DNA of 64,000 nt from Pseudomonadota bacterium (GTDB lineage: Bacteria; Pseudomonadota; Alphaproteobacteria; Rhizobiales; Beijerinckiaceae): positions 1 through 64,000 of the forward strand of contig JAJXWB010000013.1 of assembly GCA_021781815.1 (NCBI GenBank), written 5' to 3'. Below are positions 35,879 to 43,324 of this stretch, piece after piece. The notes below the pieces were generated by a model, which was given only the letters and a program-made list of their open reading frames with translations, was not told where the DNA came from and did no database searches. Position numbers and translations under genes: made by a program. Position 1 is the first letter of the stretch; each line of letters opens with the position of its first letter.

Positions 35879-36973
35879 TTAGCGACCGTCCACGGCTCCC
35901 GGCCCCAGCCCGTTCCACCTGGCCATCTCGCCCAAAGCCTCCGCCAGCCGGTCGCACTGCGCGTCCGTGCCGATGGTGATGCGCAGATAGTCCGAAATCC
36001 GCGGCTTGTTAAAATGCCGGACGATGATCGCCCTTTCCCGCAGGCCCTGGAACAGGTCGGCAGCCTTGTGCGTGGCATGGCGCGCGAAAACGAAATTGGC
36101 GCTCGACGGCAGCACGTCGAACCCAAGGCCGCGCAGCATCGTCGTCAACCGTTCGCGGCTGGCGATCACTTTCGCGCAGCTTTGCTCGAACCAGTCCTTG
36201 TCCTCATAGGCAGCCGCGGCGCCGGCCTGCGCCAGCCGGTCGAGCGGATAGGAATTGAAACTGTCCTTGACCCGCTCCAGCGCCTCGATCAGCGGACGCT
36301 GGCCAAAGGCGACGCCGACGCGCAGGCCCGCGAGTGAGCGCGACTTCGACAGTGTGTGCGTGACCAGCAGGTTGGGATAGCGATCGATCAAAGGAATCGC
36401 GCTTTCTCCGCCGAAATCGACATAGGCCTCGTCGATCACGACCGGGACGTCGGGCTGCGCTTGCAACAGCGTTTCGATTTCGGCGCGCGCCAGGCCAACG
36501 CCTGTCGGGGCGTTCGGGTTGGGCAGGATGATCCCGCCGCAGGACCGGCGATAATCGTCGAGGCGCACACGCATGTCCGCATCGAGCGGGATCTCGACGA
36601 AGTCGATGCCGTAAAGCCGGCAAAAGACCGGATAGAAGCTGTAGGTGATGTCCGGAAACAGAAGCGCTGCCCTATGCTTCAGCAGCGCCTGGAAGGTGAG
36701 CGCCAGCACTTCGTCCGAGCTGTTGCCGACAAAGATCTGGTCCGCGGAGAGTCCGTGATGGGTGGCGACCGTCTTGCGCAGCCCCAGCGACGTCGGGTCG
36801 GGATAAAGACGCAGTGTCTCGTTCGTCGCCGCGGCGATCGCTTCGAGCGCGCGCGGGCTCGGCCCATAGGGATTTTCGTTGGTGTTGAGTTTGACGATGT
36901 CGGCGATCGCCGGTTGCTCGCCTGCGACGTAGGGTTGCAGCGTATGCACCAGCGGACTCCAGAAGCGGCTCAT
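35879..36973 (-). CDS. hisC: Histidinol-phosphate aminotransferase
   Basis: '[21 protein letters not shown]', '[12 protein letters not shown]', '[16 protein letters not shown]'. Confidence 0.9.
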
Positions 36974-37178
36974 GTCACCCTGCGCTTGTCTGCGGAAAAG
37001 GCCGTTCTATCCGCTAATCGCCATCGTGGGAACGCGCCCGCGCCGCCGCTGGACCAGCGGCCGTGTCTTTTGGCTTGCCGCGAACTGCGCTAAGGGTCAT
37101 TTTTCAGGCGGATTCGCAGGAATCAATATCTTCAGGCGCTCCGCGCGGCGCGCGGGGAGGGCCAGAACGGTGCAGTCG

Positions 37179-38024
37179 ATGAATTTCGGGAAAGCGGCGA
37201 ATCGCGCGCTACGCGCACTCCGGCGAGGCGCGCCGACAGGCCTTGCGGCGGTCGCCCTGTGCGTTTCATCCGCGCAGGCTGAAAGTTTGCGGGCCACCTA
37301 CGCGCTCAGCATCATCGGCCTGCCGATTGGCACTGCCGACGCATCAGCCGCGCTGGAGCCGGATTCCTACAGGATCGAGATCGGCTTGCGCCTCACCGGG
37401 CTGGCCGCGCTCGTCTCCAAGGCCAAGGGCGCCGCGGCAGCCAACGGACAGATCGCCAATTCGACCGTCCTGCCGGCCGCCTACGCCAACACGACCGCCA
37501 ATGCGACGGAAACCCGCACGGTGCGCATGGGGCTCGCAGCCGGCACTGTGCGCGCGGTCGATATTTCACCGCCCTTCCTCGATATGGAGGGTCGCGTCCC
37601 CGTGACCGAGGCCCACAAGGCCCGAATTCTCGATCCGGTCAGCGCGCTGGTGATGACTGTACCGCCCGGCGAGCCGCTGGTCGGCCCGAGCGCCTGCGAC
37701 CACCGCACGCTGCCGGTCTACGACGGCCTCGTACGATTCAACGTCACGCTCGCTTATGTCGGCACGCGGCAGGTTCAGGCCAAGGGCTATTCAGGCCCGG
37801 TGACGGTCTGCTCGGCCCGTTACACACCGATCGCCGGGTACAAGCTCGACAGCCAGTCCACCAAATTCATGGCCGAGAATCGCAATATCGAGGCTTGGCT
37901 CGCGCCGGTCGAGCAGGCGCATGTCGTCGTGCCCTACTATATTTCGGTCGGCACCAAGGCCGGGACGATCGTGATCCAGGCGGTCGACTTCCAGCTCGTG
38001 CATGAACACGCGCAAAGTCAGTGA
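37179..38024 (+). CDS. DUF3108 domain-containing exported protein
   Basis: Signal peptide, 'LRATYALSIIGLPIGTADASAAL...YRIEIGLRLTGLAALVSKAKGAAAANG'. Confidence 0.75.
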   Translation: MNFGKAANRALRALRRGAPTGLAAVALCVSSAQAESLRATYALSIIGLPIGTADASAALEPDSYRIEIGLRLTGLAALVSKAKGAAAANGQIANSTVLPAAYANTTANATETRTVRMGLAAGTVRAVDISPPFLDMEGRVPVTEAHKARILDPVSALVMTVPPGEPLVGPSACDHRTLPVYDGLVRFNVTLAYVGTRQVQAKGYSGPVTVCSARYTPIAGYKLDSQSTKFMAENRNIEAWLAPVEQAHVVVPYYISVGTKAGTIVIQAVDFQLVHEHAQSQ

Positions 38025-38173
38025 TCCATTTCCGGCCAGCGGGCCGCTGAAAAGATTAACGCGCGATCCGCCGCCGCTTTGGTCTATTCCGTTTCTCGGC
38101 ATTCCGCTTGTGGCGCGACAATCCGGCGCCCCCATATGTTGCGGGAACAGGGCGTGAAAATCGTAATTTCAGT

Positions 38174-38418
38174 GATTCGTGCCCGCTCCGTTCCCGCTTC
38201 GGCCTGAAAGTTAACGGCGTGCCTCCCCGAGATTCCACGCGATCTTCGCTTGACAGACACGGCGATCGGAGTCTGCGGGCGAGTCGATCCGACGCGCCGG
38301 GATTCTCGTCGCGAGTCGAGCAGATTCACAATACTTGGGGTAACTCGGGCGCCGGCCATCGACATCTTGCGGTGAACAAAACAGGATTCAGCTTGAGTCA
38401 GCGATTCGGGCGTGATTC
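38174..38418. promoter_or_regulatory. Dense GANTC cluster (11 CcrM-type sites in 245 bp) upstream of helicase gene
   Basis: GANTC at 38174, 38231, 38269, 38281, 38301, 38313, 38323, 38385, 38395, 38403, 38414; a 12th at 38537 inside the helicase ORF. Confidence 0.9.
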
Positions 38419-38508
38419 GTTCCGCTCTCGTTCGAACACTGAATTTCTGCTGCGGCGCCTGCCCCAACCTGAAACAGGGCCCTACGCCATCGAGGCCGAC
38501 GCGACCAC

Positions 38509-41500
38509 ATGACCCTGTCGATCCCGCCCGCGTCGCGACTCGAACATCCGCCGCCAACGCGCGGGGTTTCCGCGGTTTTAGGGCCGACAAACACCGGCAA
38601 GACGCATTTCGCGATCGAGCGGATGCTCGCCCATCCGACCGGCATGATCGGCCTGCCGCTCCGGCTGCTCGCCCGCGAAATTTACCAGAAGCTCGTGGCC
38701 CGCGTCGGTTCGCAGGCGGTGGCGCTCATCACCGGCGAGGAGAAGATCAAGCCGCCGCGACCGCGATTCTGGGTCTCGACGGTCGAGGCGATGCCGCGCG
38801 ACGTCGCCGTCTCGTTCCTGGCGGTCGATGAAATCCAGCTCGGCGCCGATTTCGATCGCGGCCACGTCTTCACCGACCGCATTCTCAACCGGCGCGGCGT
38901 CGACGAGACGTTGCTGATCGGCGCGGCCACCATGGCGCCGCTGATCCGCGCAATGATGCCTGGCGTTCCCATCGTCGAGCGGCCGCGCCTGTCGAAACTT
39001 GGATTTGCCGGCGACCGCAAGATTTCGCGGCTGCCGCCGCGCAGCGCCATCGTCGCCTTTTCCGCGGACGAGGTCTACGCGATCGCCGAATGGATCCGGC
39101 GCCAGCGCGGCGGCGCGGCTGTGGTTCTCGGGGCGCTGTCGCCCCGCACCCGCAACGCGCAGATCGACATGTTCCAGAACGGCGACGTCGATTATGTCGT
39201 GGCGACGGACGCCATCGGCATGGGCCTCAATCTCGATGTCGACCACATCGCCTTCGCCTCCGACCGCAAGTTCGACGGGCGTCAGTTCCGCCGACTGACG
39301 CCGGCCGAATTCGGACAGATCGCAGGACGCGCCGGCCGGCATCTGCGCGACGGGACATTTGGCACGTCCGGCCGTTGCCCGCCCTTCGACGAGGATCTGA
39401 TCGAAGAGATCGAGGATCATCGCTTCGACCCGGTGAAACTGTTGCAATGGCGCAACGCCACGCCGGATTTCTCGTCGATCGAGTCGCTGATCGCGTCGCT
39501 GGAAATTGCGCCGGACGACCCGGCTCTGACGCGCGCGCCGATAGCGGAAGACCAGATGGTGCTTCAATTTCTCGCCCACGACGCGGACGTGCGCCGGCAG
39601 GCGGCGACGCCGGCTGACATCGGCCGTCTTTGGGAATGCTGCCAGATTCCCGACTATCGCAAGGCGTCGCCCACCGCGCACGCCGAACTGGCGCGAACGA
39701 TCTTCTCCTTTGTCGTGCGGCGCGGGCGCATTCCTGACGACTGGCTCGCGCGCAGGATCGCCGCTGTCGATCGGTCCGACGGCGATATTGACGCTTTGTC
39801 CCAGCGCATCGCGCAGGTGAGAACCTGGAGCTTCATCGCCAATCGCGGCGACTGGCTCGAAGATCCCGAGCATTGGCAGGGCGCGGCGCGTCGGGTAGAG
39901 GACAGTCTGTCCGATGCGCTGCATGAGAAGCTGGCGCAGCGTTTCGTCGACCGCCGCACGAGCCTCCTCATGCGGCGCCTCAGAGAGAACAAGATGTTGG
40001 ACGCCGAGATTACTTCCGATGGCGACGTGCTGGTCGAGGGCCAGCATGTGGGACAGCTCCGTGGTTTTCGTTTCACGGCCGACCCGAAGGCCGAGGGCGA
40101 AGCCGCCAGGACGCTCAATGCCGCCGCCCAGCAGGCGCTCGCCAGCGAGATCGACAGCCGCGCGACGCGCGTGCATGACGCGGTCGATACTGCCTTCGCG
40201 CTGTCCAACGACGGCGCTATCCGCTGGCTCGGCGAGCCGATCGCCAAGATCGTGGCGAGCGAGAAAATGTTGGAGCCGCGCGCCGTCCTGATCGCCGACG
40301 AGCAACTCGCGGGCGAATCGCTGGAGAAGGTGCAGCGGCGCGTCGATCTGTGGCTCGCCCAGCATGTGACGAAGCTGCTTGGCCCGCTGGCGCAGCTCGA
40401 AGCCGGAGAAGGGTTTGAAGGCATAGCGCGCGGCGTGGCGTTTCGAATCGCCGAGGAACTGGGCGTTGTCGAACGATCGCGGATCGCGGGCGATGTGAAG
40501 AGCCTGAGCCAGGAAGGACGCGCGAGCCTGCGCAAGGCGGGTATCCGCTTCGGCGCCTATCATCTCTATGCGCAGGCTCTCCTGAAACCTGCGCCGCGGG
40601 CGCTCGCCGCGCAATTATGGTCGCTGCGGCATGGCGGCGTCGAGGGTGCGAAGGGGCTGGAGGAAGTCGCGCATCTTGCATCGTCCGGGCGCACGTCATT
40701 CGCCGCCAATGCGGACATTCCCAAAGACCTTTACCGCGCCGCCGGCTTTCGCGTCTGCGGCGAACGCGCGGTGCGTGTCGACATTCTCGAACGGCTCGCC
40801 GATCTGATCCGCCCTGCGGTCGCCTACCGCCCCGGCGCGACAGCCGGCGATCCGCCGCCCGGCGCGGCCGACGGCCAGGGATTCGTGGTGACGGTTGGCA
40901 TGACCTCGCTCGCGGGCTGTTCGGGCGAGGCCTTCGCCTCGATCCTGAAGTCGCTTGGCTTCACGATGGAGACGCGGCCGGGCCCGGCGATCACCGTGCC
41001 CCTGATCCCGAAGGCGCCGACCGAGCCTTTGCAGGCGAAGCGGCCTGAAGATGCGGACGGCGAGAGCGAGTCGCACGATCCGCTGACCGAGGCGCCCGAA
41101 GGGGCAGCCGCGGATGAAAGCGCAGAGACGCCGGCTGAAGAAGCGCTGGCCGAAACGGTCGCGGAGTTCGAGCGGACGGCGCCTGAAGAGCCGCCGGTCG
41201 AACCCGTCGTCGATGCGCAGACGCCTGCGGAGAGCGACGCGCCCGCGGACGCGCTCGAACCGCCGGCGCCCGAAATCCTGCCCCCGGCGTCGGAGGACGC
41301 GCAGGCTCCCGAGCCCGCTGAACTGACGGACGAGGCGATACTCGCCGAATCGGCGCTACAGTCGGCGGTCGAAGAGGCGGCGACTGCGGAAAGCAGCGGG
41401 CCCGCCGACGGCGAGGCGACCGTGGACGCGACAGTCCCCGCGATGATCGAAGTCTGGAGTCCCGGCGGCCGCCCGCACCAACGCCGTGAGGGCGGCCCTC

Positions 41501-41808
41501 ATCGCAAGCGCGGGCAGGGCGGCGAGAAGCGCGCGCCGCGCGAATGGATCATTCCGCAGCGTCCGGAACGGCCGAAACCAGCGGAAGGCGGGGGCGAAAA
41601 ACGCGATGGCCGGCCGAAATCCGAGGGCAGGCCCCGCCATGACGGCAAGCCGCGGTTCGAAGGCGCGCGCGAAAAGCGGCCGTTCGGCAATCGCAACGAA
41701 CGGCCGTTCGCCACATCGGACAAGCGTGAACGCGAGCGCAAGCCCGATCCCGACTCTCCCTTCGCCAAGCTGCTGGCGCTCAAGGCGGAGCTGGAAAAGA
41801 AGAAATAA
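38509..41808 (+). CDS. SUV3-like DEAD/DExH RNA helicase with acidic E/P/A-rich linker and basic C-terminal tail
   Basis: 'AVLGPTNTGKTHFAIERML', 'FLAVDEIQLGADFDRGHVFTDRIL', 'VVATDAIGMGLNLDVDHIAFAS', 'QIAGRAGRH'; C-terminal 'DSPFAKLLALKAELEKKK'. Confidence 0.9.
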   Translation: MTLSIPPASRLEHPPPTRGVSAVLGPTNTGKTHFAIERMLAHPTGMIGLPLRLLAREIYQKLVARVGSQAVALITGEEKIKPPRPRFWVSTVEAMPRDVAVSFLAVDEIQLGADFDRGHVFTDRILNRRGVDETLLIGAATMAPLIRAMMPGVPIVERPRLSKLGFAGDRKISRLPPRSAIVAFSADEVYAIAEWIRRQRGGAAVVLGALSPRTRNAQIDMFQNGDVDYVVATDAIGMGLNLDVDHIAFASDRKFDGRQFRRLTPAEFGQIAGRAGRHLRDGTFGTSGRCPPFDEDLIEEIEDHRFDPVKLLQWRNATPDFSSIESLIASLEIAPDDPALTRAPIAEDQMVLQFLAHDADVRRQAATPADIGRLWECCQIPDYRKASPTAHAELARTIFSFVVRRGRIPDDWLARRIAAVDRSDGDIDALSQRIAQVRTWSFIANRGDWLEDPEHWQGAARRVEDSLSDALHEKLAQRFVDRRTSLLMRRLRENKMLDAEITSDGDVLVEGQHVGQLRGFRFTADPKAEGEAARTLNAAAQQALASEIDSRATRVHDAVDTAFALSNDGAIRWLGEPIAKIVASEKMLEPRAVLIADEQLAGESLEKVQRRVDLWLAQHVTKLLGPLAQLEAGEGFEGIARGVAFRIAEELGVVERSRIAGDVKSLSQEGRASLRKAGIRFGAYHLYAQALLKPAPRALAAQLWSLRHGGVEGAKGLEEVAHLASSGRTSFAANADIPKDLYRAAGFRVCGERAVRVDILERLADLIRPAVAYRPGATAGDPPPGAADGQGFVVTVGMTSLAGCSGEAFASILKSLGFTMETRPGPAITVPLIPKAPTEPLQAKRPEDADGESESHDPLTEAPEGAAADESAETPAEEALAETVAEFERTAPEEPPVEPVVDAQTPAESDAPADALEPPAPEILPPASEDAQAPEPAELTDEAILAESALQSAVEEAATAESSGPADGEATVDATVPAMIEVWSPGGRPHQRREGGPHRKRGQGGEKRAPREWIIPQRPERPKPAEGGGEKRDGRPKSEGRPRHDGKPRFEGAREKRPFGNRNERPFATSDKRERERKPDPDSPFAKLLALKAELEKKK

Positions 41809-42511
41809 GCGCAGGTTCCTCGCCGCTCCATCCGCAGGCCTCCAGCGCCGCCCGCATGTGATCGGGCGCCGGCGCCGTCGCTCTGGTCGGCGGGCCGTTC
41901 TTGGCCATCGGCACGGCGATTTCGTGCGCATGCAGATGCAACGGCTGGCCGCCGATCCGCCCCGCTCCATAGACGCAATCGCCGAGAATCGGGAACCCGG
42001 ACGCGGCGCAATGAACGCGCAATTGATGCGTGCGGCCGGTCAATGGCTCCAGAGCCAACCAGGCCAGAGGCTTGCCGCCCGCATCGGTCCCGCGCCCGCG
42101 CACACGCCATCTCGTCTGCGACGGCAGTCCGGCCGGGTCGGGCTTCATCCACCATCCGCGCGTGGCGTCGAGACGGCCGAGCGGCAGGTCGATCAGTCCG
42201 GACTCGTCCTGCGGACCGCCCTCGACCACAGCCCAGTAGGTCTTGTCGATCGCGCCGCGCTTGAACAGATGCATGAGCCGTTCGAGCGCCTTGCGGTGGC
42301 GGCCGAGCACGAGGCAGCCCGACGTGTCGCGGTCGAGCCTGTGCGCGAGCGCGGGCCGGCGCGGCAGACCAAAGCGCAGCGCATCGAACGAATCCTCCAG
42401 GTTTTCGCCGCCCTTGGGGCCGCGATGCACCGGCAGGCCCGCGGGCTTGTCGATGATCAGCATCATCGCGTCGCGATGCAGAAGGCGGGAAATGGTCTCT
42501 TCCGGCGTCAT
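41780..42511 (-). CDS. RluA family pseudouridine synthase
   Basis: 'MLIIDKPAGLPVHRGPKGG', 'LAHRLDRDTSGCLVLGR', 'LTGRTHQLRVHCAASGFPILGD'; 3' end overlaps helicase 3' end by 29 bp. Confidence 0.9.
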   Translation of the reverse strand: MTPEETISRLLHRDAMMLIIDKPAGLPVHRGPKGGENLEDSFDALRFGLPRRPALAHRLDRDTSGCLVLGRHRKALERLMHLFKRGAIDKTYWAVVEGGPQDESGLIDLPLGRLDATRGWWMKPDPAGLPSQTRWRVRGRGTDAGGKPLAWLALEPLTGRTHQLRVHCAASGFPILGDCVYGAGRIGGQPLHLHAHEIAVPMAKNGPPTRATAPAPDHMRAALEACGWSGEEPALISSFPAPP

Positions 42512-42553
42512 GAGCGAAAGGGTATCTGAAGCGCGCGCGCGCCGGTCAAGCGC

Positions 42554-43324
42554 GTGGACAGGGGAAGCGCCGAAATGGAAATCGACGCCGAGGCGAAGGC
42601 AATGGATGACCGCGCGGCGGAAGCGGCCGCGATCCTCGCCGCACGCGCGTTCGACGTGTGGCTCGCGCGCGGCGCCGTGCTCGCCATCGTCGCGCTGCAG
42701 ATCCTGCTCGTAAACGATCTGTCGCCGATCCCGCGCTGGATCCTGCCGACGCTGGAACTCGCGCTGCTCGCGCCATTGTCGATTGCGACCGCATGGTCGC
42801 TCGGCGCGACCAGGAAGGTGGCGACCGCAGACGACCCCAGCGACCTCTGGGATATGGCGACGCGCCACCGCAACGCGATCCGCGCGGCCTTCATGTGGCT
42901 CACCGGCCTCGTCAGCGTCGCCAATCTTCTCTCCCTCAACGGCCTGGTCGCCGCCATTCTCCGGGGCAACGCCGCCAACGGAAAGTCGCTCCTGCTCGAT
43001 GCCCTGAACATCTGGGGAACCAACCTAATTATCTTCGCGCTCTGGTACTGGCACATTGATCAGCGCATTCCGGTCGTCGGCGAGGATCCGCGGCCGGATT
43101 TCCTGTTCACGCAGCAGACCCTGCCGGCGAGCGCGGCCAGGCCGGCTTACAATCCAGGCTTCGTCGATTATCTGTTCCTTGCCTTCACCAACGCCACGGC
43201 GTTTTCTCCCTCCGACACATTTCCGCTCACGGCGCGCGCGAAACTGCTGATGATGCTACAGGCCTTGATATCCCTCGTGACGATAGCACTGGTGGCGGCG
43301 CGGGCGGTCGGCATTCTGGCTTGA
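42554..43324 (+). CDS. Multipass membrane protein with two-TM ion-channel-like C-terminus
   Basis: Hydrophobic segments; 'NPGFVDYLFLAFTNATAFSPSDTFPLTARAKLLMMLQALISLVTIALVAARAVGIL'; start 42554 or 42575. Confidence 0.6.
   Translation: MDRGSAEMEIDAEAKAMDDRAAEAAAILAARAFDVWLARGAVLAIVALQILLVNDLSPIPRWILPTLELALLAPLSIATAWSLGATRKVATADDPSDLWDMATRHRNAIRAAFMWLTGLVSVANLLSLNGLVAAILRGNAANGKSLLLDALNIWGTNLIIFALWYWHIDQRIPVVGEDPRPDFLFTQQTLPASAARPAYNPGFVDYLFLAFTNATAFSPSDTFPLTARAKLLMMLQALISLVTIALVAARAVGILA

What the first reader, a model, noticed from the sequence alone, without database searches (positions are those of the whole stretch)
38174..38418. Extreme GANTC cluster: 11 CcrM-type methylation sites in 245 bp, partly helically phased
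GATTC/GAGTC starts at 38174, 38231, 38269, 38281, 38301, 38313, 38323, 38385, 38395, 38403 and 38414. Within two sub-clusters the spacings are about 10-20 bp (12, 20, 12, 10 and 10, 8, 11). A manual scan of acnA (2.7 kb) found only about 2 GANTC, so this block is enriched by more than an order of magnitude. It fills the intergenic region between the DUF3108 gene and the SUV3-like helicase, where no credible ORF was seen. In Alphaproteobacteria GANTC is the CcrM target, and methylated sites are read by GcrA. Possible roles: a methylation-gated promoter coupling the helicase to the cell cycle, a GcrA/CcrM titration site, or a replication/segregation-associated element. I saw no DnaA-box consensus and no parS-like palindrome.
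Basis: partly seen in the sequence, partly recalled or inferred. Interest (0 to 1): 0.82.

Follow-up and report, generated by a model that had tools for sequence, protein, structure and literature searches.

The report
Ancient methylation-rich switch before helicase gene
The dense run of DNA-methylation sites is real: it belongs to an old 86-base control element that sits in front of a Suv3-like helicase gene in many alphaproteobacteria, and it looks like a place where cell-cycle methylation and DNA-damage control could meet.

Summary
Eleven GANTC sites lie at exactly the stated positions. In a 780-kb sample of the same genome the next densest 245-bp stretch has 6. Poisson P for 11 or more is about 4e-10 at the intergenic rate. 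The cluster is built on two tandem copies of an 86-bp conserved element (38131-38214, degenerate; 38359-38443, canonical) plus a six-site block between them. A sequence profile finds the element in 232 of 298 Hyphomicrobiales genomes and in other alphaproteobacterial orders. Its best copy lay upstream of, and codirectional with, the Suv3-like helicase in 84 of 84 loci checked, even in 1.3-Mb AT-rich genomes. Its invariant centre is CGATTCG, a match to the GcrA/CcrM extended motif YGAKTCK. It is flanked by GTTC-N7-GTTC (the LexA box of this class) and an opposed, weaker GAAC-N7-GAn. The extra GANTC sites are lineage-specific. In one family (f20) they form an array phased at 10.5 bp while the spacers diverged; in this genome phasing is only nominal. 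Most likely this is a composite cis-regulatory region for the helicase, read by GcrA/CcrM and LexA. Both readers are inferred from motifs, not shown. It is not oriC.

The parts
38131..38214 (+). Copy A of the 86-bp element (degenerate; one GANTC, at 38174)
   Evidence: Profile R1 match 34.0 bits, E 7.7e-10
38359..38443 (+). Copy B, the canonical 86-bp element (four GANTC: 38385, 38395, 38403, 38414)
   Evidence: Profile R1 match 72.5 bits, E 7.4e-22; copies A and B are the only two matches in the genome
38402..38408 (+). CGATTCG, invariant centre of the element; matches GcrA/CcrM extended motif YGAKTCK
   Evidence: Fits YGAKTCK at 98-100% per column in 104 units; motif described in PMC7987155
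38419..38433 (+). GTTC-N7-GTTC, LexA-type box abutting the last GATTC
   Evidence: Half-sites 99-100% and 88-98% conserved per column with variable spacer; same box near lexA genes of relatives
38374..38388 (-). GAACAAA-N4-GATT, opposed and weaker LexA-like box; carries GANTC 38385
   Evidence: GAACRAA nearly invariant; GAAC-N7-GAAC in some upstream copies of relatives
38360..38369 (.). Degenerate palindrome CMANATNTWG at the left edge of the element
   Evidence: Logo positions -14 to -5
38231..38327 (+). Inter-copy block with six GANTC (38231, 38269, 38281, 38301, 38313, 38323)
   Evidence: one of the six (38269) intact in all four genus members, four more in at least one relative
38250..38255 (+). 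TTGACA, -35-like word; TTGAC invariant in four genus members
   Evidence: Alignment A2; no matching -10 found
38509..41808 (+). Suv3-like helicase gene (DEXQc_Suv3, Helicase_C)
   Evidence: Pfam PF22527 E 5.7e-23, PF00271; downstream of the element in 84/84 loci
36972..38024 (+). DUF3108 gene upstream (start codon uncertain)
   Evidence: Pfam PF11306 E 4.7e-17

Best explanation
The cluster is the upstream control region of the Suv3-like helicase gene. Its heart is an old composite element, present twice here. SHOWN: conservation, position and orientation before the helicase, and motif content. INFERRED: CcrM methylates the sites late in the cell cycle; after the fork passes they are hemimethylated; GcrA reads the central CGATTCG (YGAKTCK) and helps RNA polymerase; LexA sits on GTTC-N7-GTTC, whose first half-site abuts the last GATTC, and represses or tunes the promoter until DNA damage. 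The helicase would then be made in step with replication and raised under DNA damage. The extra GANTC sites that pile up in some lineages would strengthen or sharpen the methylation-dependent step.
For: Profile R1 hits 232/298 order genomes, usually 1-3 copies and up to 6, and 30/296 genomes drawn from the class. The best element lies upstream of and codirectional with the helicase in 84/84 loci and in 16/18 loci of the class-wide set. It stays with the helicase when the upstream gene changes (DUF3108, or phbB and a hydrolase) and in 1.3-Mb AT-rich genomes. CGATTCG is nearly invariant. GTTC-N7-GTTC is conserved with a variable spacer, and lexA genes of relatives have the same box. CcrM-type methylase in 45/45 genomes, LexA in 21/22, GcrA in this genome. 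In four genus members 29 of 44 GA.TC columns are invariant against 120 of 408 others, and site 38385 is GATTC or GACTC but always GANTC.
Against: No transcript start, ChIP or methylation data. No consensus promoter found. Distance from element to helicase varies from 36 to 1163 bp, and up to four copies occur about 270 bp apart, which is odd for a simple operator. Some copies sit at other loci in two families. About a fifth of order genomes lack a match, including one with CcrM and LexA (G030). The first half of the left LexA-like box is weak in the canonical copy. Three of the four core GANTC are lost in the reduced genomes.
Confidence: 0.55

Rival explanations
1. LexA-type operator only: the element is a pair of opposed LexA boxes with degenerate repeats, and GANTC words are a by-product because GATTC resembles the half-site GTTC. 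Methylation plays no part.
For: PMC7987155 states that degenerate GTTC-N7-GTTC can overlap GANTC and explain its conservation. In the core, ATTC at 30 and 41 are 11 bp apart like LexA half-sites. Reduced genomes keep GTTC-N7-GTTC but only one core GANTC.
Against: The inter-copy sites (GAGTC, GATTC) and the 21-bp-spaced GACTC array of family f20 are not LexA-like. Site 38385 changes its middle base but stays GANTC. Central CGATTCG is fixed with flanks fitting YGAKTCK.
Confidence: 0.22
2. A DNA site for chromosome replication or its control (initiator titration, sequestration, origin-like) that lies beside the helicase gene.
For: Tandem units, dense methylation sites and, near the element in 139 loci, perfect DnaA boxes (8 in 53 kb against 0 in 495 kb of mostly coding flank) and TTAAC words (12.5-fold). 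Resembles the make-up of Caulobacter oriC (own knowledge).
Against: hemE, the known oriC neighbour, is 37 kb to about 2.3 Mb or more away, and coarse GC skew does not single out the element. No DnaA box at this locus. Strict tie to one gene in one orientation.
Confidence: 0.12
3. A non-coding RNA gene or a mobile repeat.
For: Several tandem copies in some genomes.
Against: No Rfam match above threshold; consensus fold -2.5 kcal/mol with no compensatory pair in 46 sequences; only two copies in this genome, both here; conservation limited to spaced words; fixed place before one gene.
Confidence: 0.06
4. Chance or compositional cluster.
For: None found.
Against: Poisson P 3.7e-10 and conservation across an order.
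Confidence: 0.01

Closest known systems
GcrA/CcrM-regulated promoters of Caulobacter and Brevundimonas (PMC7987155)
   Same: YGAKTCK site in the upstream region of a gene; CcrM and GcrA encoded in the genome
   Different: Part of an 86-bp composite element with LexA-type boxes, repeated in tandem, with up to 11-15 GANTC; binding and regulation not shown
Alphaproteobacterial SOS promoters with LexA box GTTC-N7-GTTC
   Same: Same spaced half-sites; precedent for overlap with GANTC (PMC7987155)
   Different: Target is a Suv3-like helicase, not found as an SOS gene in the papers searched here; two opposed boxes and an invariant central GATTC
E. coli oriC / SeqA GATC arrays
   Same: Many methylation sites in about 250 bp; helical phasing (in family f20)
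   Different: Different methylase, not at the origin, no SeqA relative tested; methylation timing unknown
MucR-shielded hypomethylated GANTC loci (PMC5172544)
   Same: GANTC in control regions of Caulobacter and S. meliloti genes
   Different: Those are shielded sites at MucR targets; the words cluster, helicase and LexA do not occur in that paper's main text; MucR binding not tested here

Membership tests
GcrA/CcrM-regulated promoter | CcrM and GcrA encoded in the genome | tested here: met
   RAMA methylase at C53 and GcrA at C40
GcrA/CcrM-regulated promoter | YGAKTCK site in the control region, conserved | tested here: met
   CGATTCG nearly invariant in 104 units; 5 of 11 sites here fit YGAKTCK
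GcrA/CcrM-regulated promoter | Site placed within a sigma-70 promoter | tested here: inconclusive
   No consensus promoter; only a TTGACA word without a -10 partner
GcrA/CcrM-regulated promoter | GcrA binding and methylation-dependent expression | not testable with these tools
   Needs ChIP, methylome and expression data
LexA/SOS operator | GTTC-N7-GTTC conserved upstream of the gene | tested here: met
   box kept in five AT-rich reduced genomes
LexA/SOS operator | LexA present and using this box | tested here: met
   LexA in 21/22 genomes; GTTC-N7-GTTC near lexA in all eight loci looked at
LexA/SOS operator | LexA binding and damage induction | not testable with these tools
   Needs ChIP or mitomycin C expression data
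Chromosomal origin (oriC) | Lies at the origin, beside hemE in this group | tested here: not met
   37 kb to about 2.3 Mb or more from hemE in complete relatives
Chromosomal origin (oriC) | DnaA boxes at the locus | tested here: not met
   None in this intergenic region, though present near the element in some relatives
SeqA-type phased methylation array | Sites on one helical face | tested here: inconclusive
   Nominal here (p 0.024; scan 0.10), strong in f20 (R 0.84-0.99)

The most novel reading that the evidence does not exclude
The region is a methylation sensor built from a helically phased GANTC array: a protein binds cooperatively along one DNA face of hemimethylated or methylated GANTC sites, as SeqA does on GATC, and this state, together with LexA on the abutting boxes, sets expression of an ancient helicase. 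It would be a cis-acting link between CcrM methylation and the SOS response.
Probability: 0.15. Interest if true: 0.85.

Novelty: new variant of a known kind. Interest (0 to 1): 0.62.

Why it matters
A non-coding element this well conserved across alphaproteobacterial orders, always before one gene, points to an old regulatory link that was not found in the papers searched. It joins the marks of two systems normally studied apart, CcrM/GcrA cell-cycle methylation and the SOS response, and gives a defined site to test whether methylation state gates a LexA-type promoter. The 10.5-bp-phased array of one family is a natural experiment for a GANTC reader that works by cooperative binding.

Tried and rejected
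Rfam search of the region: nothing above threshold. sigma-70 promoter and terminator scan: none. RNA structure: no covariation. oriC: hemE too far, GC skew from 20-kb samples too noisy to place the origin finely. Coding sequence: ORFs over the region (38108-38512 and others) were not tested for coding signals; the intergenic part differs by indels between genus members. CtrA: full TTAA-N7-TTAA is hardly enriched (1 near against 3 far), though TTAAC is; left open. My first scan with a mis-spaced pattern was discarded and redone. Literature searches found no description of this element, but the library lacks most subscription journals.

Full report
1. Observation. The window as a whole is depleted in GANTC (160 against 351 expected from shuffles), as is usual in CcrM genomes. 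The block is 18-fold enriched, while no other palindromic five-letter word of the same form reaches 3-fold. In 780 kb of the same genome the densest 245-bp stretch elsewhere holds 6 sites. At the intergenic rate P(>=11) is 3.7e-10. A whole-genome search for close triplets finds 30 forward places, 5 of them here. All 11 sites are GAKTC on the + strand; in the genome sample GAATC (700) and GATTC (676) are about equal.

2. What it is. Comparing the region upstream of the Suv3-like helicase (Pfam PF22527) across relatives showed a fixed core with GANTC spacings 10, 8, 11 from Beijerinckiaceae to Rhizobium and Hoeflea. Aligning 104 copies gave an 86-bp element: CMANATNTWG, then GAACRAA, GAnTC, GAGTC, AGC, GATTC, G, N5, GATTC, GTTC, N7, GTTC, N6, TTAA. 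Only spaced words are conserved; the letters between them vary.

3. Distribution. A sequence-only profile (R1) finds two copies in this genome, both here: A 38131-38214 (34 bits) and B 38359-38443 (72.5 bits). It finds the element in 232 of 298 genomes of the order and in 30 of 296 genomes drawn from the class. The best copy lies upstream of the helicase on the same strand in 84 of 84 loci and in 16 of 18 loci of the class-wide set within the 1.5 kb examined. Distance to the conserved start of the helicase is 36-1163 bp, median 170. Some genomes have up to four copies about 270 bp apart (Hoeflea L057). Genomes of 1.3 Mb and 35% G+C still keep one copy between DUF3108 and the helicase.

4. Which sites matter. 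The central CGATTCG is nearly invariant and fits YGAKTCK, the extended motif reported for GcrA-activated promoters in Caulobacter (PMC7987155; the same paper finds no such extension in Brevundimonas). GTTC-N7-GTTC next to the last GATTC is the LexA box of alphaproteobacteria (same paper), and the lexA loci of eight relatives contain it. The reduced genomes keep both but lose three of the four core GANTC. So the core function does not need the whole cluster; the extra sites are additions of certain lineages.

5. Are the extra sites selected? In four members of the genus 29 of 44 GA.TC columns are invariant against 120 of 408 other columns. Part of this is the core itself. Site 38385 is GATTC here and GACTC in the other three, that is, GANTC is kept while the middle base changes. 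In family f20 the upstream sites lie at about -205, -184, -163, -120, -89, -68, -47 and -26 with 10.5-bp phase (R 0.84-0.99; p <= 0.0007 in each of 10 genomes, which are related and so not independent) although the 210 bp upstream are on average 45% identical ungapped. In this genome phasing is weak.

6. Mechanism. CcrM-type methylase is present in 45 of 45 genomes tested, LexA in 21 of 22, GcrA here. The simplest reading is a composite control region: methylation state read through GcrA at the central site, LexA at the abutting box, acting on the helicase. Binding, promoter position and expression are not shown. The main rival is a LexA operator whose half-sites happen to spell GANTC, as PMC7987155 suggests for other SOS genes; the f20 array and site 38385 argue against that being all.

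7. Not the origin. hemE, which by published work recalled here marks oriC in Caulobacter and S. meliloti, is 37 kb to about 2.3 Mb or more from the element in complete relatives. Still, perfect DnaA boxes (8 in 53 kb against 0 in 495 kb) and TTAAC words are enriched around it (the flanks are mostly coding, so part of this is an intergenic effect), and a replication-control role is kept as a rival.

8. Novelty. Six literature searches found no account of this element or of a Suv3-like helicase under LexA or CcrM. The parts are known; the combination, its breadth and the phased array appear new. The literature library is incomplete.

Noticed in passing
L204:5352-5700, L205:3375-3716, L209, L210: Family f20 carries further copies of the element at a second locus; in L204 it lies beside genes that read by eye as MltA, Smr and RNase T2.
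   Followed up: partly
L207:4982-5065, L208:4781-4865, L211:5158-5240: Family f36 genomes have a second copy far from the helicase; in L207 near a likely PHA depolymerase gene (read by eye).
   Followed up: partly
L156, L150, L153, L160-L162 (centre of the phased array): The f20 GANTC array is roughly mirror-symmetric (GAGTC/GAATC left, GACTC right) around a TTAA-N7-TCAAC word that resembles a CtrA box.
   Followed up: no
L008 (upstream of copy A), L137-L140, L115: Perfect DnaA boxes (TTATCCACA) near the element in some relatives, none in this window.
   Followed up: partly
L002:64-102 (G000:C8), G000:C22:41562, C53:65, C59:151452: A repeat with three close GANTC occurs mostly at contig ends of this genome; probably a mobile repeat that broke the assembly.
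   Followed up: no
41780-42868, - strand: The gene after the helicase runs the other way and reads like an RluA-type pseudouridine synthase.
   Followed up: no
L180, L181, L183, L184 (-145 to -102): Family f36 has its own compact block GAATC-N5-GACTC-...-GATTCGACTC upstream of the element.
   Followed up: no
38360-38369: The left-edge palindrome CMANATNTWG resembles the core of NrdR boxes (from memory, untested).
   Followed up: no
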